A program made the position numbers and the translations under genes. A stretch of DNA of 6,666 nucleotides from Eubacteriales bacterium (GTDB lineage Bacteria > Bacillota_A > Clostridia > Christensenellales > Aristaeellaceae): assembly GCA_028692205.1 (NCBI GenBank), contig JAQUXV010000150.1:1-6666 (forward strand), read 5' to 3'. Position 1 is the stretch's first letter, and every line of letters begins with the position of its first letter. This document shows positions 1-6,666 of this stretch, one piece after another. Below the pieces are notes generated by a model. The model was given only the letters and a program-made list of their open reading frames with translations. It ran no database searches and was not told the DNA's origin.

Positions 1-239
1 CCGATCACTTCCACGATGTTCGGGTTAGTTTGGTCGCCGCCCATCGCCATTTTAACGCGTTCGGCCAGAATGGCGCGCTCCTTGTAAACACAGCAGCGCG
101 TTTTCGGCTTGGGGCCCGGGGCGATCAGCTTGGGAATGTCAAGGTAACTGTCCGCCAGCCGGTCTTCATAGGCGTGGCGGGCCACCTCCCGCAGCACCTC
201 ATATTTCAGTTTCTGGACGTCGGTATCAAAAAGACGCAT
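1..239 (-). CDS. Monomeric [FeFe] hydrogenase, N-terminal 79 codons only (group B/HydA2-like)
   Basis: The frame runs from an ATG at 237-239 to the left edge without a stop, so only the first 79 residues are seen. The start is strongly supported by GGAGGT (249-244), the best ribosome site in the window. The peptide begins MRLFDTDVQKLKYEVLREVA and contains PGPKPKTRCCVYKERA at about 41-56, and AMGGD and NPN near 65-74. I recognise this as the N-terminus of monomeric, ferredoxin-dependent [FeFe] hydrogenases of group B type, where cysteine-rich [4Fe-4S] motifs and the H-cluster domain follow. Those diagnostic parts lie outside the window, so the call rests on the N-terminus and on context: in R. 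albus the corresponding gene, hydA2, lies next to hydS. It would make H2 from reduced ferredoxin. A related Fe-S protein without an H-cluster is the main alternative. Confidence 0.75.
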   Translation of the reverse strand, partial: MRLFDTDVQKLKYEVLREVARHAYEDRLADSYLDIPKLIAPGPKPKTRCCVYKERAILAERVKMAMGGDQTNPNIVEVI

Positions 240-433
240 AGGCACCTCCATGTATCGTGTGGTCCCCGGTTCCGGACGGCAAGATCAGGTGAAGATTATG
301 CAAACCCCTTGAGCTTGCAGCAGTGCAGCCGCTTCAGCCCTGAACAGAGCGGAAGGCGTTACCGGCGGCGTTTTTGGTTTGTGCCGCCTGTCTGCTTTCC
401 CGGTGATTGCAAAGCGATCAAACAGGCTGTTGG
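240..433 (-). other. 194-base intergenic region between phosphatase and second hydrogenase genes
   Basis: No credible gene is present; a short frame starting inside the phosphatase gene runs into it but has no recognisable content. One perfect 6-bp stem (GGCGGC/GCCGCC, 364-388) with a 13-base A/C-rich loop lies here, without a T-run on either strand. A CATAAT hexamer occurs on the minus strand near 300, but no matching -35 element is visible. The spacing would allow an internal promoter or processing site for the second hydrogenase. Confidence 0.4.
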
Positions 434-1606
434 CTAAAAATAGGAAAGGCGTATGTGCTTGCCCATCTGTTTCAGGCATTCGGCCAGCGACTGGATCAGC
501 TGCTGCTTGACGCCGAAAGTGATGGGCAAATCGGGGTTCTGGTGCGCCGGATTGATAGCCAGTCCAACAAAGAAGTTGATGTCGGTTGCGTTTTCAAACA
601 GCTCGCGGGCAATCTGGCTGGCCCCGTCCTTGCCGACGGCCCAGTCCGGCGCGAGCTTGGCGCTGTCCAGAAAATCCCGCGCATAGGTGAGCACCTTGGA
701 AAGCGTCACCACGCCTTCGGTTACCAGATCGACGCCCTCGATGACGCTGGTGGGCGGCACGTCCGGGTCCGGATAATCCAGCGAGGGAACCAGCTGCCGG
801 TGCAGGTAGTCCGCCGCCAGCCGGCTGGTGGTACCGCCGCAGACAATTTTCGCCCCCTCTTTGGCGAAGAAAAGATTCATCATTTTCATGTCCTGCGTTT
901 TGTCGGCGGGCGGGCCGACCACCAGATTTACGGGGTGCCGCCTGCGCACGCGCAGTACCGCGATGGTGGTGTCATCGCCGGGCTGATCGCCGTACAGGCG
1001 GCCGCACTCGTCCGCAATCAGTCCGGCGGTGCTTTTGGCGGAATTTTGCGGCAGGTAATTGGCGCTGGCGTATTGCGCGATACGGTCCCGCGTCCAGCCG
1101 AAGTTGAACGCGCTGCCGACGCCCGCGTATTCCGCACCGTCGCTCATGGCGATGAGCACGTCCCCACATTCGACGGGAAAGGTGCTTTCCCAGATGGATT
1201 TTCCCGCGATGACGCGGGTAACGGTGGGATAATCCATCGGCTCGCCGTTGCGCAACACGATGGTAGCGGGATTGTCGAACTGGATAATCTGCGCCATGCG
1301 GTTCTCGGTAACACGCAAAATGGTGAAGGTGGAATAAGCCAGCTGGCGAACGCTGCAAACGGGAAGCGTGCTCGCGATGGTGGAAACGCATTCCTCAATG
1401 GGCATGCCGCCGTTTAGCAGCGTGCAGGTGATTTTGCTGGTAAGGGTTGCCAGAATGTTGGCTTTCACGCCGCTGCCCAGCCCGTCGGCCAGCACGAGGG
1501 TTATGTCGTCCTCCCCGCCGCCCGCAACTTCCACACGGTCGCCGCAAAGGGTCTCGCCACGCTTGTTCAGGCTCACATAGCCTGCTTCCGTCCAAAGATT
1601 ATTCAC
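434..1606 (-). CDS. SpoIIE-family (PP2C-type) protein phosphatase with conserved extra C-terminal domain
   Basis: A 390-residue, probably metal-dependent Ser/Thr phosphatase. Residues 1-222 form the SpoIIE/PP2C domain: CGD at 21-23, Asp41-Gly42 in LADGLGSG, Asp156-Gly157 in AMSDGAEYAG, and Asp211-Asp212 in GDDTTIAVLRV; these acidic residues are the expected metal ligands. A second domain at about 226-390 contains VVGPP, CGGTT (256-260), GVDLVTEG (291-298) and INPAHQ (351-356). I recognise it as recurring behind such phosphatases in Clostridia but cannot name a function. The GTG start overlaps the hydS stop by eight bases (GTGAATAA), with only a distant AAGGA 11 bases upstream, so translation is probably coupled and the two proteins probably act together. 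The substrate is unknown: no STAS-type anti-anti-sigma gene, the usual SpoIIE-family target, is visible. No membrane segments are seen, unlike SpoIIE itself. Confidence 0.92.
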   Translation of the reverse strand: MNNLWTEAGYVSLNKRGETLCGDRVEVAGGGEDDITLVLADGLGSGVKANILATLTSKITCTLLNGGMPIEECVSTIASTLPVCSVRQLAYSTFTILRVTENRMAQIIQFDNPATIVLRNGEPMDYPTVTRVIAGKSIWESTFPVECGDVLIAMSDGAEYAGVGSAFNFGWTRDRIAQYASANYLPQNSAKSTAGLIADECGRLYGDQPGDDTTIAVLRVRRRHPVNLVVGPPADKTQDMKMMNLFFAKEGAKIVCGGTTSRLAADYLHRQLVPSLDYPDPDVPPTSVIEGVDLVTEGVVTLSKVLTYARDFLDSAKLAPDWAVGKDGASQIARELFENATDINFFVGLAINPAHQNPDLPITFGVKQQLIQSLAECLKQMGKHIRLSYF

Positions 1607-3269
1607 GGTTCATCGCATCCTTCAGGTTGGAGAGGGCAAGCTTGGTTTCGGCGGTGGTTTCGCCCAGCAGCGAAGCGATCTCCTGTACCACGCGCATCTG
1701 CTTGTCGATGACGCGGTCGGCCGTTTCCACCGTGCGGCGGCGCAGATCGTCGTCTTTACCGCGCATGGTTTCGCGCTCGGTCACATCGCGCATGATGGCG
1801 ATTACGATATGGTACTGCCGGTCGTACAGCACGGTTTCTTCGATATAGAGCTGGTATTCGGCCAGATAGCGGCAGGTGCCGACTGTATTGTGCGCCGAAA
1901 CCACTACAGTTTTATACGGCTCAGGGTTCAGAATCCGTACCACGTTTTCGTGCAGAATGTCGGTTTCAGCCGTTAAACGGAACAGCTTGACCGCCGCGCG
2001 GTTAATCTGCTGCACTACCAGCTGCTCGTCCATCACCAGCACGGCGTTGGGCGTGTTGTTGATGATGGTGTCGCTGAAACTTTCGGCTTTCTCCTTCAGG
2101 AAGGGCAAACACATGCTGATCTCCGCCTTGCCCTGCAGAATGGCCACCGCCTTGTCCCGGCAGGTGGGGTAGCCGCAGGAGCCGCAGTTAAGTTCCTTCT
2201 CCGGGCTGGTTTTCCCCATTTTAAGCAGCATGGCGTTAATGGCTTCGCTGCCGAAGTTGACGGTTTTCCCACCCAGAAACGCAAAGGAACGGCTGACGCT
2301 TTCCGGTGGAGCCTCGATGGTGAAACGCTCGTCGCCCGCGTAAGCGTCCACGCGCAATGCGCCCTTGATGCGGCGCTCCCGATGTTCGCGAATACAGGGG
2401 CCATTGATGCAGCTGCCCTCGCAGGCGCTCATTTCGATGAACACGTTCTTCACCTTGCCGCGCTCCAGCTCGTCGAAAGCCATACGGCAGTTATCCACGC
2501 CGTCGATGGCGACGCGCCGGTAGCCGGAAATCTGCTCGGTTGCTTTCAGGATGCCGCCGGTGGCCGGGTAGAAGCGCGAGCGTTTGCCCTCGTCGGCCTC
2601 CGATTCCATATCCGGCAGGTTTACCTGTTCCTCCGTCATCCAGTCCCGAAGCTCGTCATAGGTGAGCGCAACGTCGATGTAGGGGCTGTTGTCCGCTTCG
2701 TCTTTTTTTGCGATACAGGGACCGGCGAACACGGTAAAGCAATCGGGGTTTTGTTGCTTTAGCAGCTTGCAATGCGCCTGCGCGGGGGTGAGCACCTTGG
2801 CGAGATGGGCGAGCATGGTGGGATAGTACTTCTGCGCCAACAGGTTGATGGCGGGGCAGCAGCTGGAAATGATTATGCTTTGCCGGTGCTGCCGCATGAT
2901 CGCCGCATACTCGTCGCTGACCATCTGCGCACCGATCGCTGTCTCCTGCACATCGGCAAAACCAAGCTGCTTCAGCGCCGCCGCCATGCCGGAAACATCG
3001 TGTGTGTGAAAATCTGCGATAAAAGAGGGTGCGAGGCTGCAAACCACCCTTTTCCCTGCGGTGATCGCGTTTTTCACCAACTGCACGTCGTTACGGATCT
3101 GTTTGGCTTTCTGCGGGCAGGCTACGAAACAGCTGCCGCACAGGATGCACTCGTCCGGCAATATCTGCGCCCGATTATCGGCAAAGCTGATGGCTTTGAC
3201 CGAGCAGGTGCGGATACATTTATAACAGTCCTTGCAGTTGTTTTCCTTCAGGCTCAGAATATCCGGCAT
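1599..3269 (-). CDS. hydS: Sensory-type [FeFe] hydrogenase with PAS domain (HydS-like, group C)
   Basis: A probable H2 or redox sensor in the cytoplasm. Residues are numbered from the outer ATG at 3299 (566 residues); the inner ATG at 3269, residue 11, is preferred for its ribosome site and because the conserved ferredoxin part follows at once. Domains in order: two [4Fe-4S] ferredoxin motifs (Cys22/25/28/32 and Cys51/54/57/61); an H-cluster domain with SSCCP (Cys147, Cys148), GPCIAKKDE (Cys195, Lys198) and EMSACEGSC (Cys293, Cys297); a four-cysteine Fe-S motif CGSCGYPTC plus Cys397 (372/375/380/397); a PAS domain at about 408-508; and a charged helical, possibly coiled-coil tail at 511-560. 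All four H-cluster ligands and the proton-relay Cys147 are kept. The Met residues of the usual MPC and MAC motifs are Gly193 and Ser291. No output domain is fused; the overlapping phosphatase gene probably supplies it. The protein needs the HydEFG maturases, which are not in this window. Confidence 0.93.
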   Translation of the reverse strand: MPDILSLKENNCKDCYKCIRTCSVKAISFADNRAQILPDECILCGSCFVACPQKAKQIRNDVQLVKNAITAGKRVVCSLAPSFIADFHTHDVSGMAAALKQLGFADVQETAIGAQMVSDEYAAIMRQHRQSIIISSCCPAINLLAQKYYPTMLAHLAKVLTPAQAHCKLLKQQNPDCFTVFAGPCIAKKDEADNSPYIDVALTYDELRDWMTEEQVNLPDMESEADEGKRSRFYPATGGILKATEQISGYRRVAIDGVDNCRMAFDELERGKVKNVFIEMSACEGSCINGPCIREHRERRIKGALRVDAYAGDERFTIEAPPESVSRSFAFLGGKTVNFGSEAINAMLLKMGKTSPEKELNCGSCGYPTCRDKAVAILQGKAEISMCLPFLKEKAESFSDTIINNTPNAVLVMDEQLVVQQINRAAVKLFRLTAETDILHENVVRILNPEPYKTVVVSAHNTVGTCRYLAEYQLYIEETVLYDRQYHIVIAIMRDVTERETMRGKDDDLRRRTVETADRVIDKQMRVVQEIASLLGETTAETKLALSNLKDAMNRE

Positions 3270-3279
3270 CGGATTCACG

Positions 3280-3284
3280 CTCCC
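3280..3284 (-). promoter_or_regulatory. Ribosome binding site that favours the inner hydS start
   Basis: GGGAG on the minus strand lies ten bases before the ATG at 3269. The two upstream in-frame ATGs (3299 and 3290) have no purine-rich site before them, only a run of T and C. This makes 3269 the better start for the sensory hydrogenase, shortening it by ten residues to 556. Confidence 0.5.
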
Positions 3285-3326
3285 AAACATCGATAACATA
3301 GGGGAAAATACGAATGCTGCGGCCTG

Positions 3327-3348
3327 AAAACGGCGCTGCCGCGCGCCG
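3327..3348 (-). terminator. Weak terminator or attenuator between ferredoxin and sensory hydrogenase genes
   Basis: On the minus strand CGGCGC, a six-base loop (GCGGCA) and GCGCCG form a perfect 6-bp stem followed at once by TTTT and then CAGG. The T-run is short, so partial read-through is likely; it could lower hydrogenase expression relative to the ferredoxin. Confidence 0.4.
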
Positions 3349-3378
3349 GTTCAACGGGCCGATAATAATAAAAGCGAA

Positions 3379-3624
3379 TTAGACGGCTTTCGGGAGAACC
3401 TGCTCCTCGAAAAACTGTTTGGTATCCTCGGGTTTCAGGGAAAAATTCTCAGTGCCGACGGTAACGCATACGCCGTTTTGGCAATTGCCCATGCAAAACT
3501 GGCCCGCGAGCTCCACCTTATCCTTCAGGTTGTTGGCGGCGACGAGGCGCTGCAGCTCCTCCACGATCTGGCGGGATCCTTTCAGGTGGCAGCTGCTGCC
3601 GATACAGATGGTTACCTTCACCAT
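3379..3624 (-). CDS. Thioredoxin-like [2Fe-2S] ferredoxin
   Basis: An 81-residue cytoplasmic protein with the fold of the C-terminal part of NuoE/HydC (24-kDa complex I subunit) and of small thioredoxin-like [2Fe-2S] ferredoxins. The four expected ligands are Cys7 and Cys12 (CIGSSC) and Cys44 and Cys48 (CMGNC); Cys53 is an extra nearby cysteine. The helical N-terminal extension of full NuoE is absent, so it is a stand-alone carrier and not a shortened complex I subunit. It directly precedes the sensory hydrogenase, which suggests electron exchange with that protein or redox input to it; this is inference. The start is supported by AAAGGAG nine bases upstream. The TAA stop is 109 bases from the preferred hydrogenase start, and a weak terminator-like hairpin lies between. 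Confidence 0.9.
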   Translation of the reverse strand: MVKVTICIGSSCHLKGSRQIVEELQRLVAANNLKDKVELAGQFCMGNCQNGVCVTVGTENFSLKPEDTKQFFEEQVLPKAV

Positions 3625-3663
3625 GCCGATACGCTCCTTTACAGTTGAGTTTTATTCGATGCT

Positions 3664-3689
3664 ACCCCCGAAGGTGAACCTCCGGGGGT
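3664..3689 (-). promoter_or_regulatory. Strong 11-bp hairpin upstream of the ferredoxin gene
   Basis: On the minus strand ACCCCCGGAGG pairs with CCTTCGGGGGT around a TTCA tetraloop: 11 continuous pairs, one of them G-U. On the plus strand that pair becomes A-C, so the structure fits minus-strand RNA. No T-run follows, so it is not a classical Rho-independent terminator. It begins the last 65 bases before the ferredoxin ATG and could be a 5' stabiliser, a processing boundary or an attenuator remnant. Confidence 0.55.
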
Positions 3690-3707
3690 GAAGCGCGGTA
3701 TTGTTAT

Positions 3708-3726
3708 GGGCGAAAACCTTACGCCC
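3708..3726 (-). promoter_or_regulatory. Small hairpin in the intergenic leader
   Basis: GGGCG and CGCCC form a 5-bp stem around a 9-base loop. It lies between the long-range stem and the strong C/G-rich hairpin nearer the ferredoxin gene. Short enough to arise by chance in GC-rich DNA. Confidence 0.25.
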
Positions 3727-3749
3727 GGGAAAACGGGGGAGAGGCCGCG

Positions 3750-3808
3750 CGCAAGGCGGGAATCCTTCACAGCGAGCCCGGTTCAGCCCGGTAGAAACCC
3801 GCCCTGCG
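3750..3808 (-). promoter_or_regulatory. Long-range stem-loop in the intergenic leader
   Basis: Read on the minus strand, CGCAGGGCGGG (3808-3798) can pair with CCCGCCTTGCG (3760-3750): 11 pairs including one G-U, enclosing a 37-base loop that carries the repeated ACCGGGCT. On the plus strand the same position would be an A-C mismatch, so the structure favours minus-strand RNA, the direction of the genes. The function is unknown. Confidence 0.4.
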
Positions 3809-3854
3809 AGCCCTATGCGCCGCGAAGGAGAAAAGCGGTTCCGTAATCCGCGGT

Positions 3855-4604
3855 TTATTCGTAGTCCATCACGTTCGCCCAGCGGAGAAGGAACTCCCGT
3901 TCCTCCGGTTTGCCCTTCACGATCTGGCTGGCGGCTACGATGGGAATCCACTTCTGCACATACTGTCTGGCGGTGTCGCTTTTTTTGCAGAACAGGGAAA
4001 GGTATTCTTCCGCACCGTTCATATCTCCGTCCAGCCAGAAGAGCAGGTAGGTGCGCGCCGCGTCGGCGGAAGCGTTGCCCTGCGTGGCGTGCGACCAATC
4101 CAGAATGTAAGCCTCGTCCTTCTCGTTGATAATGATGTTCTTGGGGTTGAAGTCGCCGTGGCAAAGCTTGTTATGCCGGGGCATGCCTTCCAGCCGGGCG
4201 TGCAGCTCGTAGCGCGTGGTGGCGTCCAACCCGCTCTGGCTGATTTTACGGTTCATCTTATCCCGGAGAAGCGTCATCAGCGGGGCGTTCTGCGTATGCA
4301 TCATCAGCTGCAGATCCACGAAGCGCTCCATGTACTCGGCTTTCTTTTCGGGCTGCTCCGCCATCAGCTGCGCGAGGGTTTTACCGGTGATGTAATCGCT
4401 CACGATGGCCCATTTGCCGTTTACCTTGGTCACTTCCCGAAGGGTGGGCACGTTGAGCGCCGTTTCCTCGGCGCGCGCCTGGTTAAGCGCTTCGTTGAGG
4501 ACGTCGGCCTTGCTGTAATCGTCGTCGAACACCTTCACGGCCAGATCGCCGTCGCGGTACACGGTTTTATTGGTGCGAACCGCGATCACTTTTTCCAGTT
4601 TCAT
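3855..4604 (-). CDS. Small APH/choline-kinase-fold kinase
   Basis: A 249-residue cytoplasmic kinase of the aminoglycoside phosphotransferase/choline kinase superfamily. Visible motifs are a short N-lobe with Lys24 in LAVKVF (ATP-binding lysine) and Glu38 as its likely partner, a hinge-like IVSDYITGKT around 67-75, the catalytic loop HGDFNPKN at 149-156 (Asp151 base, Asn156 metal ligand), and the metal-binding Asp169 in ILDW. All catalytic positions are present, so it should be active. The substrate cannot be read from sequence. The setting next to a sensory hydrogenase and a PP2C-type phosphatase argues against antibiotic resistance and for signalling; a small-molecule kinase remains possible. 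In the reported R. albus hydS/hydA2 unit a 'serine/threonine protein kinase' accompanies the dehydrogenase; this gene may be its counterpart. The start is supported by GGGAGGG six bases upstream. No membrane segment is seen. Confidence 0.88.
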   Translation of the reverse strand: MKLEKVIAVRTNKTVYRDGDLAVKVFDDDYSKADVLNEALNQARAEETALNVPTLREVTKVNGKWAIVSDYITGKTLAQLMAEQPEKKAEYMERFVDLQLMMHTQNAPLMTLLRDKMNRKISQSGLDATTRYELHARLEGMPRHNKLCHGDFNPKNIIINEKDEAYILDWSHATQGNASADAARTYLLFWLDGDMNGAEEYLSLFCKKSDTARQYVQKWIPIVAASQIVKGKPEEREFLLRWANVMDYE

Positions 4605-4627: not shown

Positions 4628-6666
4628 TTACTTTTTCTCGCCGTAGTAGGCGTTCAGGTACATTTGCTTGATTTCGCTCATCAGCGGATAGCGCGGGTTG
4701 GCGCCGGTGCACTGGTCGTCGAACGCCAACTCCGTCATCGCGTCCAGCCGGGCAAGGAAATCCTTCTCGTCAACGCCGTAATCGCGGATGGTCTTTTTGA
4801 TGCCGATCTTGGCTTTAAGCTCGTCGATGGCGACGATCAGCCGTTCCAGCTTCTCCTCATCCGTTTTGCCGCCGAGCTTGAGTGCGTCGGCCACCATGGC
4901 GTAGCGGGCGAGCGTGTGGGGATGATCGTACTGCGAGAAGGTGCCCATCTTGGCCGGAACCTCGGCGGCGTTGTAGCGGAGCACCTCGTCGATCAGCAGC
5001 GCGTTGGCGATGCCGTGCGGCAGGTGGTGGAACGCGCCCAGCTTATGCGCCATGCTGTGGCATACGCCAAGGAAGGCGTTGGCAAACGCCATGCCGGCAA
5101 TGGTGGCGGCGTTGGCCATCTTCTCGCGGGCCAGCGCGTCGTTGGGGCCGTTGTCGTAAGCGCGGGGCAGGTATTCGAAGATCATCTTGAGCGCCTGCAG
5201 GGCAAGGCCGTCGGTGTAATCGGTCGCCATCATGCTGGCGATGGCTTCCAGGCAGTGGGTTACCGCGTCGATGCCGCTGGCGGAGGTGAGGCCCTTGGGG
5301 GCGTCCATCATCATATCCGCATCCACGATCGCCATGTTGGGCAGCAGCTCGTAATCCGCCAGCGCGTATTTTACGCTGGTTTTTTCATTGGTGATGATGG
5401 TGAAGGGCGTAACCTCGCTGCCGGTGCCCGCCGTGGTGGGGACTGCGATAAAGTAGGCTTTCTGGCCCATTTTGGGGAAGGTGTAGATGCGCTTGCGGAT
5501 ATCGCAGAAGCGCATGGCCATATCCATAAAGTCCGCTTCCGGATGTTCGTAGAGCACCCACATAATTTTGGCGGCGTCCATGGCGCTGCCGCCGCCGATG
5601 GCGATGATGCAATCGGGCTGGAAGGCGTTCATGGCCTTCACACCCTCGCGGGCGCACGCCAGCGTGGGGTCGGGAGCGACATCGAAGAAGCAGGTGTGCT
5701 GGATACCCATTTCGTCCAGCCGGTCGGTGACGGCTTTGGTGTAACCGTTGTTATAGAGGAAGGAGTCGGTGACGATGAACACCTTTTTCTTATCCATCAC
5801 GTCTTTCAACTCGCGCAACGCCACGGGCAGGCAGCCCTTCTTGATATACACTTTCTGCGGGGTGCGGAACCAGAGCATATTCTCTCTCCTCTCGGCGACG
5901 GTTTTAATGTTCAGCAAATGCTTTACGCCGACGTTTTCGCTGACGGAGTTGCCGCCCCAGGAGCCGCAGCCCAGCGTGAGGGAGGGGAGAAGCTTAAAGT
6001 TGTACAGGTCGCCGATACCGCCGTGGGAGGAGGGCGTATTTACCACGATGCGGCAGGTTTCCATCTTTTCGGAGAAGCGATTCAGCTTCGCCTGCTGCGT
6101 GCGGGTATCCAGGTATACGCTCGCCGTGTGGCCGTGGCCGCCGTCCTCAATCAGGCGTTCCGCTTTGGCCATCGCCTCGTCAAAATCTTTCGCGTGGTAC
6201 ATGGCCAGCACCGGAGAAAGCTTTTCATGGGCGAATTCCTCGCTCATGTCTACGCTTTCCACTTCGCCAATCAGCACCTTGGTTTCTACGGGCACGGTAA
6301 CGCCAGCAAGCCCCGCGATCTTCACGGCGGACTGGCCGACGATCTTGGCGTTCAGGGCGCCGTTAACCAGAATGGTCTTGCGAACCTTGTCCAGTTCTTC
6401 ACCCTTCAGGAAATAGCAGCCGCGGGCGGCGAACTCCGCACGTACTTTTTTATAGATGGAATCCAGCACGATCACGCTCTGCTCGGACGCGCAGATCATG
6501 CCGTTGTCAAACGTCTTGGAGTGGATCACGGAGTTGACGGCCAGCAGAATATCCGCGCTGTCGTCAATAATGGCGGGCACGTTGCCCGGGCCCACGCCCA
6601 GCGCCGGTTTGCCGCTGGAATAAGCGGAACGTACCATGCCGGGGCCGCCGGTGGCGAGAATGCAGT
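4628..6666 (-). CDS. adhE: Bifunctional acetaldehyde-CoA/alcohol dehydrogenase AdhE, N-terminus cut by window edge
   Basis: Reduces acetyl-CoA to acetaldehyde and then to ethanol with two NADH; a cytoplasmic enzyme that forms helical filaments in relatives. The reading frame is open to the right edge, so the ATG at 6637 is internal: nine in-frame residues (CILATGGPG) precede it. Numbering from that Met, the aldehyde dehydrogenase half shows the catalytic Cys49 in DNGMICASEQ, and the linker NMLWFRTP starts near 253. The iron-dependent alcohol dehydrogenase half has the nucleotide-binding GGGSAMDAAK at 348-357 and the iron ligands Asp457, His461, His527 and His541. Their spacings (4, 66, 14) equal those of E. 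coli AdhE (653, 657, 723, 737). By the same alignment about 190 N-terminal residues are missing. The TAA stop lies 23 bases before the kinase gene, with no terminator between, so the two are probably cotranscribed. Identity is certain; in vivo direction (ethanol formation) is inferred. Confidence 0.97.
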   Translation of the reverse strand, partial: CILATGGPGMVRSAYSSGKPALGVGPGNVPAIIDDSADILLAVNSVIHSKTFDNGMICASEQSVIVLDSIYKKVRAEFAARGCYFLKGEELDKVRKTILVNGALNAKIVGQSAVKIAGLAGVTVPVETKVLIGEVESVDMSEEFAHEKLSPVLAMYHAKDFDEAMAKAERLIEDGGHGHTASVYLDTRTQQAKLNRFSEKMETCRIVVNTPSSHGGIGDLYNFKLLPSLTLGCGSWGGNSVSENVGVKHLLNIKTVAERRENMLWFRTPQKVYIKKGCLPVALRELKDVMDKKKVFIVTDSFLYNNGYTKAVTDRLDEMGIQHTCFFDVAPDPTLACAREGVKAMNAFQPDCIIAIGGGSAMDAAKIMWVLYEHPEADFMDMAMRFCDIRKRIYTFPKMGQKAYFIAVPTTAGTGSEVTPFTIITNEKTSVKYALADYELLPNMAIVDADMMMDAPKGLTSASGIDAVTHCLEAIASMMATDYTDGLALQALKMIFEYLPRAYDNGPNDALAREKMANAATIAGMAFANAFLGVCHSMAHKLGAFHHLPHGIANALLIDEVLRYNAAEVPAKMGTFSQYDHPHTLARYAMVADALKLGGKTDEEKLERLIVAIDELKAKIGIKKTIRDYGVDEKDFLARLDAMTELAFDDQCTGANPRYPLMSEIKQMYLNAYYGEKK

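What the first reader, a model, noticed from the sequence alone, without database searches (positions are those of the whole stretch)
1..4604. Sensory hydrogenase flanked by a kinase, a phosphatase and a second hydrogenase: a candidate H2-sensing phospho-signalling module next to adhE
Seen: six collinear genes, adhE, APH-fold kinase, [2Fe-2S] ferredoxin, PAS-[FeFe] hydrogenase, SpoIIE-type phosphatase, second hydrogenase. Known, from memory: R. albus 7 has hydS and hydA2 in one transcription unit with an aldehyde/alcohol dehydrogenase, a kinase, a phosphatase and a redox repressor, and HydS was proposed as an H2 sensor. Inferred: the hydrogenase reads H2 or redox state, the phosphatase and kinase adjust phosphorylation of a target, and the outcome sets ethanol versus H2 production. 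The locus type is described, but the target and signal flow are not, to my knowledge.
Basis: partly seen in the sequence, partly recalled or inferred. Interest (0 to 1): 0.75.

Follow-up and report, generated by a model that had tools for sequence, protein, structure and literature searches.

The report
Hydrogen-sensor operon joined to ethanol genes
A fermenting bacterium carries a known kind of hydrogen-sensor/phosphatase operon joined to its ethanol gene, and the kinase beside it turns out to belong with the ethanol gene rather than with the sensor.

Summary
The six collinear genes are real: adhE (cut by the window edge), APH-fold kinase, thioredoxin-like [2Fe-2S] ferredoxin, PAS [FeFe] hydrogenase (HydS, group C type), SpoIIE/PP2C phosphatase, and the start of a group B type [FeFe] hydrogenase. 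The locus type is known (R. albus 7 cluster; the genetically studied hfs operon). New here is how it splits. In 291 Clostridia, 78 of 80 HydS genomes hold the phosphatase; in 79 loci most like the query the ferredoxin precedes HydS in 75. The kinase goes with adhE: 59 of 71 copies lie directly 3' of adhE; 34 of its 66 genomes have no HydS match (33 after one contig-edge case), and 48 of 80 HydS genomes lack the kinase. Rex-type operators precede adhE, or rex in front of it, in 23 of 36 loci (10 of 549 control genes). So a fixed kinase-phosphatase pair on one target is not supported. Best reading: a Rex-controlled adhE-kinase unit joined to a ferredoxin-HydS-phosphatase-hydrogenase unit, in which HydS probably controls the phosphatase in trans through its conserved C-terminal helix. 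Targets of both enzymes remain unknown; a kinase acting on AdhE itself is the most novel open reading.

The parts
4628..6664 (-). adhE, bifunctional acetaldehyde-CoA/alcohol dehydrogenase, 5' end cut by the window edge
   Evidence: NF010378 1074 bits over its 951 cut-off; 84% identical to the AdhE of genome G001
3855..4604 (-). APH-fold kinase, 249 aa, partner gene of adhE
   Evidence: PF01636; Lys24, Asp151, Asn156, Asp169 in 49 of 49 aligned sequences; 59 of 71 copies of the family lie directly 3' of adhE
3379..3624 (-). thioredoxin-like [2Fe-2S] ferredoxin, 81 aa
   Evidence: PF01257; matches residues 572-620 of a solved Fe-hydrogenase alpha subunit (7p5h_A, E 6e-8) and 7-64 of a HydB (7q4v_B, E 3.6e-5); upstream of hydS in 75 of 79 loci
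1599..3269 (-). hydS, putative sensory group C type [FeFe] hydrogenase with C-terminal [4Fe-4S], PAS and conserved C-terminal helix, 556 aa
434..1606 (-). SpoIIE/PP2C Ser/Thr phosphatase with an added C-terminal alpha/beta domain, 390 aa
   Evidence: PF07228; model mean pLDDT 86.1, residues 2-223 like PP2C; C-terminal domain model pLDDT 91.4
1599..1606 (-). 8-base overlap of hydS stop and phosphatase start (GTGAATAA), suggesting translational coupling
3..239 (-). start of a second, group B1 type monomeric [FeFe] hydrogenase, cut by the window edge
   Evidence: TIGR04105 on the fragment; full-length relatives from L004 and L044 score 558 and 551 over the 450 cut-off

Best explanation
Two redox-control units that also occur apart are joined here in one collinear gene row. 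Unit 1, adhE plus an APH-fold kinase, is probably switched on by release of the repressor Rex when NADH is high. Unit 2, ferredoxin-HydS-phosphatase-group B hydrogenase, is a known H2/redox-sensor operon type. Inferred mechanism: the H-cluster of HydS equilibrates with H2 and reduced ferredoxin; the electron state is passed through its C-terminal [4Fe-4S] cluster to the PAS domain; the conserved helix after the PAS domain changes the activity of the separate phosphatase, whose catalytic domain starts at its first residues and carries no regulatory linker of its own. By analogy with the hfs mutants, HydS holds back a phosphatase-dependent rise of adhE expression and ethanol. The kinase is not the obligate opponent of the phosphatase; its substrate is more likely AdhE or a small molecule tied to AdhE. 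Shown here: families, active-site residues, gene linkage, Rex sites in relatives. Inferred: signal flow, both substrates, Rex control of this window's own operon.
For: HydS/phosphatase: 78 of 80 HydS genomes hold the phosphatase and 78 of 80 the other way, of 291 searched; phosphatase directly after hydS in 76 of 76 loci with enough sequence. Kinase/adhE: 63 of 66 kinase genomes hold the close AdhE type; 59 of 71 copies directly 3' of adhE on the same strand, 33 of these in genomes without a HydS match (32 after the contig-edge case G123); adhE-kinase in all 20 regions of 7.5-11 kb that I chose from HydS-lacking genomes, with no HydS, phosphatase or hydrogenase match in them. Catalytic residues: H-cluster Cys 138, 185, 283, 287 in 81 of 81; phosphatase Asp41, 156, 211, 212 in 77 of 77; kinase Lys24, Asp151, Asp169 in 49 of 49. 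HydS has Gly and Ser where, by my alignment of motifs, classical enzymes have the two Met, as told of T. maritima HydS (passages of PMC8163306). HydS helix 514-556: mean majority fraction 0.83 against 0.65 for the H-domain. Rex operators: 23 of 36 adhE loci, 10 of 549 control genes. hfs genetics: abstract, passages and full Discussion of PMC5707799.
Against: No experiment on this organism; no direct evidence of HydS-phosphatase contact; no HydS-phosphatase fusion found. In the R. albus account HydS is proposed to induce adhE at high H2 (PMC6776011), whereas hfsB deletion raises adhE (PMC5707799): the signs agree only if HydS represses when H2 is low. Six genes do stand in order in 33 of 62 loci, and kinase and HydS co-occur more than by chance, so a joint function in those lineages is not excluded. 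The kinase is not obligatory for adhE: 58 of 95 close-type adhE copies have it within 500 bases. Associations were not corrected for relatedness; genomes may be incomplete; the 1e-40 cut misses divergent kinases such as that of L059. 13 of 36 adhE loci show no Rex site at this cut, and the Rex site of this window's own operon lies outside the window.
Confidence: 0.6

Rival explanations
1. First reader's model, close to the proposal of Zheng et al.: HydS senses H2 and works through the adjacent kinase and phosphatase as one phosphorylation cycle on a shared target that sets ethanol against H2.
For: All six genes in order in 33 of 62 loci; HydS is present in 32 of 66 kinase genomes against 48 of 225 others, Fisher p 3e-5 uncorrected for relatedness; a proposal that HydS signals to an adjacent Ser/Thr kinase is in print as retold in PMC5707799.
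Against: 48 of 80 HydS genomes lack the kinase and 34 of 66 kinase genomes lack a HydS match, 33 of them lack both HydS and phosphatase. A fixed kinase/phosphatase pair should not be separable this often.
Confidence: 0.2
2. Transcription is set by Rex alone (NADH/NAD+, which rises with H2); HydS and the phosphatase tune enzyme activity or have another target, and are not the cause of the large H2 response.
For: Rex operators in 23 of 36 adhE loci against 10 of 549 control genes, and in 13 of 19 HydS-lacking adhE-kinase loci; a rex-type gene directly before adhE in 13 of 36 adhE loci.
Against: hfsA or hfsB deletion changes adhE transcript two- to threefold and rex expression moves in the unexpected direction (PMC5707799 Discussion). 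13 of 36 adhE loci show no site at this cut.
Confidence: 0.35
3. HydS is not a sensor but a catalytic or electron-transfer hydrogenase, with the ferredoxin as its partner.
For: H-cluster ligands are kept in 81 of 81 and Cys137, by position the proton-transfer Cys, in 80 of 81; the ferredoxin is its steady neighbour.
Against: Gly/Ser replacements, PAS domain, conserved output-like helix, and the steady phosphatase partner; hydrogenase activity rises when hfsB is deleted (PMC5707799).
Confidence: 0.1

Closest known systems
Ruminococcus albus 7 eight-gene cluster (PMC6776011, passages; Zheng et al. 2014 not held, known through other papers and recall)
   Same: bifunctional alcohol/aldehyde dehydrogenase, sensory group C hydrogenase, putative Ser/Thr phosphatase and a second [FeFe] hydrogenase together; 111-fold lower expression in co-culture with an H2 consumer
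   Different: that paper calls the second hydrogenase group A1, here the models say B1; the R. albus sequence itself was not compared; this work shows the kinase is separable from HydS
hfsABCD operon of Thermoanaerobacterium, also studied in C. thermocellum (PMC5707799, PMC11837493)
   Same: PAS hydrogenase (hfsB), serine phosphatase (hfsC) and second hydrogenase (hfsD) in a row; regulatory link to adhE
   Different: in what I read no adhE or kinase is part of that operon; [quoted passage not shown]
T. maritima HydS (group C, M2f)
   Same: Ser/Gly replacements beside the diiron site, PAS domain, extra clusters (as told in PMC8163306 passages)
   Different: sequence and partner genes were not compared directly
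RsbU/RsbP/SpoIIE PP2C phosphatases
   Different: no N-terminal regulatory part; extra C-terminal alpha/beta domain; the proposed regulator is a separate hydrogenase

Membership tests
[quoted passage not shown]
   Cys138, 185, 283, 287 in 81 of 81 aligned sequences
[quoted passage not shown]
   GPC in 81 of 81; at the second place Ser in 76 and Asn in 5 of 81; meaning from PMC8163306 passages, positions matched by me
[quoted passage not shown]
   Fer4 families, PF04060 E 9.4e-12, PF00989 23.2 bits over its 22.6 cut-off
[quoted passage not shown]
   needs biochemistry
hfs-type operon | PAS hydrogenase, serine phosphatase and second hydrogenase in this order | tested here: met
   window; 61 of 73 loci have a hydrogenase after the phosphatase
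hfs-type operon | hfsA gene in front | not tested
   hfs sequences were not fetched
SpoIIE/RsbU PP2C phosphatase | metal-binding Asp residues and PP2C fold | tested here: met
SpoIIE/RsbU PP2C phosphatase | own N-terminal regulatory domain or linker | tested here: not met
   catalytic fold spans residues 2-223 of the model; untrimmed open frames are 389-395 aa in 76 of 76 loci and at most 420 aa in the 80 genomes
SpoIIE/RsbU PP2C phosphatase | anti-sigma kinase and STAS antagonist partners | tested here: inconclusive
   seven gene families recur in 6 or more of 80 loci, none of this kind by query match or by Pfam of representatives; rarer neighbours and the rest of the genomes were not searched
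APH-type kinase | catalytic Lys, HGDxxxxN and DW motifs | tested here: met
   (His149 in 48 of 49, the rest 49 of 49)
group B1 monomeric [FeFe] hydrogenase | TIGR04105 above cut-off | tested here: inconclusive
   window holds only the first 79-83 residues (67 bits); two full-length relatives pass
Rex regulon | operator upstream of the transcription unit | tested here: inconclusive
   met in 23 of 36 relatives; the window ends inside adhE

The most novel reading that the evidence does not exclude
The APH-fold kinase is a dedicated regulator of AdhE: a two-gene adhE-kinase unit, Rex-controlled, spread over Clostridia independently of the hydrogen sensor, in which the kinase phosphorylates AdhE itself (or a ligand of it) and so sets ethanol flux after transcription. 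In lineages like this one it has been joined to a HydS-phosphatase unit, giving transcriptional and post-translational redox control in one operon.
Probability: 0.3. Interest if true: 0.7.

Novelty: new member of a known kind. Interest (0 to 1): 0.42.

Why it matters
Ethanol against H2 is a main branch point of anaerobic fermentation in guts, rumens and biofuel strains. Splitting the locus into two units says which knockout answers which question: hydS and phosphatase for sensing, kinase for AdhE. The hfs paper reports a change of NADH-ADH but not NADH-ALDH activity that expression alone does not explain and suggests post-transcriptional control (PMC5707799 Discussion); where a kinase travels with adhE it is a direct candidate to test.

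Tried and rejected
HydS-phosphatase fusions: a search restricted by length to long proteins that share the phosphatase gave 11 proteins among 7997 scored candidates; I read four of them. The two with hydrogenase domains join the phosphatase to another hydrogenase, not to HydS, and look like deletions or chimeras (my reading). No support for a fused form.

Counts mended on checking: an earlier Rex count of 27 of 39 included single-domain alcohol dehydrogenases in the adhE cluster; the clean count is 23 of 36. One kinase genome counted as lacking HydS, G123, shows a HydS piece at a contig end (L102).

Rfam (gathering threshold) and tRNA scans of the window: nothing. Literature: ten searches in an open-licence library. 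Searches found no paper. In the listings and passages seen I met no account of a kinase linked to adhE apart from HydS; most hits were seen as titles only, so this absence is weak.

Full report
What is there. Six genes lie in a row on the - strand: adhE (5' end outside the window), APH-fold kinase, thioredoxin-like [2Fe-2S] ferredoxin, HydS, SpoIIE phosphatase and the start of a second [FeFe] hydrogenase. HydS is best started at 3269. It has Fer4 clusters, the H-domain, a C-terminal [4Fe-4S] domain and a PAS domain. The phosphatase gene overlaps the hydS stop by 8 bases. The second hydrogenase fits the group B1 model on the fragment only; full-length relatives from two loci pass the curated cut-off.

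Relatives. Among the listed homologues that a source names, several are Candidatus Limiplasma and unnamed Clostridiales or Eubacteriales. A genome-contig scan with a 22-row HydS alignment kept the best 80 of 219 confirmed matches. Among these 80, counting only loci with enough flank: phosphatase directly after hydS 76 of 76 (4 dropped); ferredoxin before hydS 75 of 79 (1 dropped); second hydrogenase after the phosphatase 61 of 73 (7 dropped); kinase upstream 44 of 69 (11 dropped); adhE upstream 38 of 66 (14 dropped); all six in order 33 of 62 (18 dropped). Because the scan was seeded with close relatives of the query, these shares are biased towards this architecture.

A wider sample. In 291 genomes of the same class, drawn evenly, the kinase was found in 66 (E up to 1e-40), HydS in 80 (1e-100), the phosphatase in 80 (1e-60) and AdhE in 131 (1e-150), of which 91 hold a close type (62% identity or more; the rest are 46-50%). 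HydS and phosphatase share 78 genomes (82 hold either); 75 of 81 HydS copies have the phosphatase within 200 bases, and of the six others G057 is a record split and G263 lies at a contig end (my reading of positions). The kinase and the close AdhE share 63 genomes (Fisher p 1e-37), the kinase and HydS 32 (p 3e-5); these p values ignore relatedness. Of 71 kinase hits (one gene appears as two fragments) 59 lie directly 3' of adhE, same strand; 33 of these are in genomes without a HydS match, 32 once G123 is set aside, whose HydS is cut by a contig end (L102). 20 of 81 HydS copies have the kinase within 3 kb. Of 95 close-type adhE copies 58 have the kinase within 500 bases, so the kinase is frequent but not obligatory for adhE. 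Twenty regions of 7.5-11 kb from HydS-lacking kinase genomes, chosen by me from the 34, were read: adhE-kinase in 20 of 20; one has a ferredoxin match after the kinase, none a HydS, phosphatase or hydrogenase match. Of 15 HydS genomes tested earlier, 14 of them picked because no close kinase stands right beside hydS, only those of L001 and L062 hold a close kinase, and L062's lies about 8 kb upstream of hydS.

What this does to the idea. Three do (ferredoxin, HydS, phosphatase); the kinase belongs with adhE. A phosphatase in HydS genomes that lack the kinase (48 of 80) must have a substrate phosphorylated by something else there, unless a divergent kinase below the cut does it.

Regulation. 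A script compared 410 bases around gene starts with the Rex operator TTGTTAAN4TTAACAA (consensus recalled). At 12 or more of 14 letters, a site lies upstream of adhE, or of a rex-type gene directly before it, in 23 of 36 adhE loci, 19 of them at adhE itself, against 10 of 549 other genes in the same loci. HydS-lacking adhE-kinase loci show it in 13 of 19 (one of 20 dropped for lack of flank), and 8 of 21 ferredoxin genes in loci without adhE or kinase have one. A rex-type gene family recurs in 17 of 80 loci and a LysR-type family in 24; two representatives of the first and one of the second were confirmed by Pfam. The window itself ends inside adhE, so its own site cannot be read.

Residues and structure. 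In 81 aligned HydS sequences all four H-cluster Cys are constant, Cys137 of the first motif is kept in 80, and Gly and Ser (Asn in 5) stand where classical enzymes have Met (comparison from PMC8163306 passages). The helix at 514-556 has a mean majority fraction of 0.83, the C-terminal cluster region 0.85, the N-terminal cluster region 0.75, the H-domain 0.65 and the PAS core 0.66. The phosphatase model (pLDDT 86.1) shows PP2C at 2-223 with no regulatory part in front, and an alpha/beta domain behind it that is about as conserved as the catalytic part (62 of 168 against 71 of 222 positions at 95% or more). In RsbU a partner-induced coiled-coil linker dimerises and activates the phosphatase domains (PMC12143880, abstract and passages). 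HydS may supply such a helix from a separate protein; this is inference.

What is known. PMC6776011 (passages) reports a 111-fold drop of an eight-gene R. albus cluster with alcohol/aldehyde dehydrogenase and group C hydrogenase in co-culture, and proposes H2 sensing with a phosphatase. PMC5707799 (abstract, passages, full Discussion) shows that deleting hfsA or hfsB, the latter the HydS homologue, raises ethanol about 1.8-fold with two- to threefold more adhE mRNA, that hfsC and hfsD are needed, that NADH-ADH but not NADH-ALDH activity rises, and retells the proposal that HydS signals to an adjacent Ser/Thr kinase. PMC11837493 (passages) says HfsC has homology with serine phosphatases. PMC12578642 (passages) says group C enzymes are thought to regulate [FeFe] hydrogenases. 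So the locus kind, the sensing idea and even the kinase idea are in print; the separation of the kinase from HydS was not in what I read.

Verdict. Real, mostly known, with a corrected partition. The open points worth a bench test are the substrate of an adhE-linked kinase and whether HydS acts on the phosphatase through its last helix.

Noticed in passing
window 434-943: The phosphatase carries a conserved C-terminal alpha/beta domain without a Pfam family (GPP, CGGTT, TEG and NPAHQNP motifs); it could be a second ligand-sensing or substrate-binding site.
   Followed up: partly
L024, L036, L039, L045, L066, L080 and others, just upstream of hydS: Two ferredoxin genes in tandem: one near the kinase more like the window's, a second, more distant one next to hydS. 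The window has only the first type.
   Followed up: partly
L009 8130-12842: Rearranged order: ferredoxin and second hydrogenase precede hydS and phosphatase.
   Followed up: no
L055 and L077, around hydS: HydABC-like subunits lie near the hydS-phosphatase pair; in L077 a NuoE-type and a NuoF-type protein were confirmed by Pfam.
   Followed up: partly
P0035: The Cys at the proton-transfer position of the first H-cluster motif is Ala in this homologue.
   Followed up: no
L059 8741-9427: A divergent kinase (30% identical) stands at the kinase's place after a rex-type gene, without adhE upstream; the 1e-40 cut would miss such genes.
   Followed up: partly
window 4664-6664, + strand: A 667-codon open frame runs antisense to adhE, probably a by-product of codon usage.
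   Followed up: no
window 3625-3854: A 230-base, 61% GC gap between kinase and ferredoxin; the median of 49 relatives is about 19 bases and two reach 230 or more; no Rfam match.
   Followed up: partly
L047: A contig labelled Bacteroides sp. carries the adhE-to-hydrogenase row; probably a mis-binned contig.
   Followed up: no
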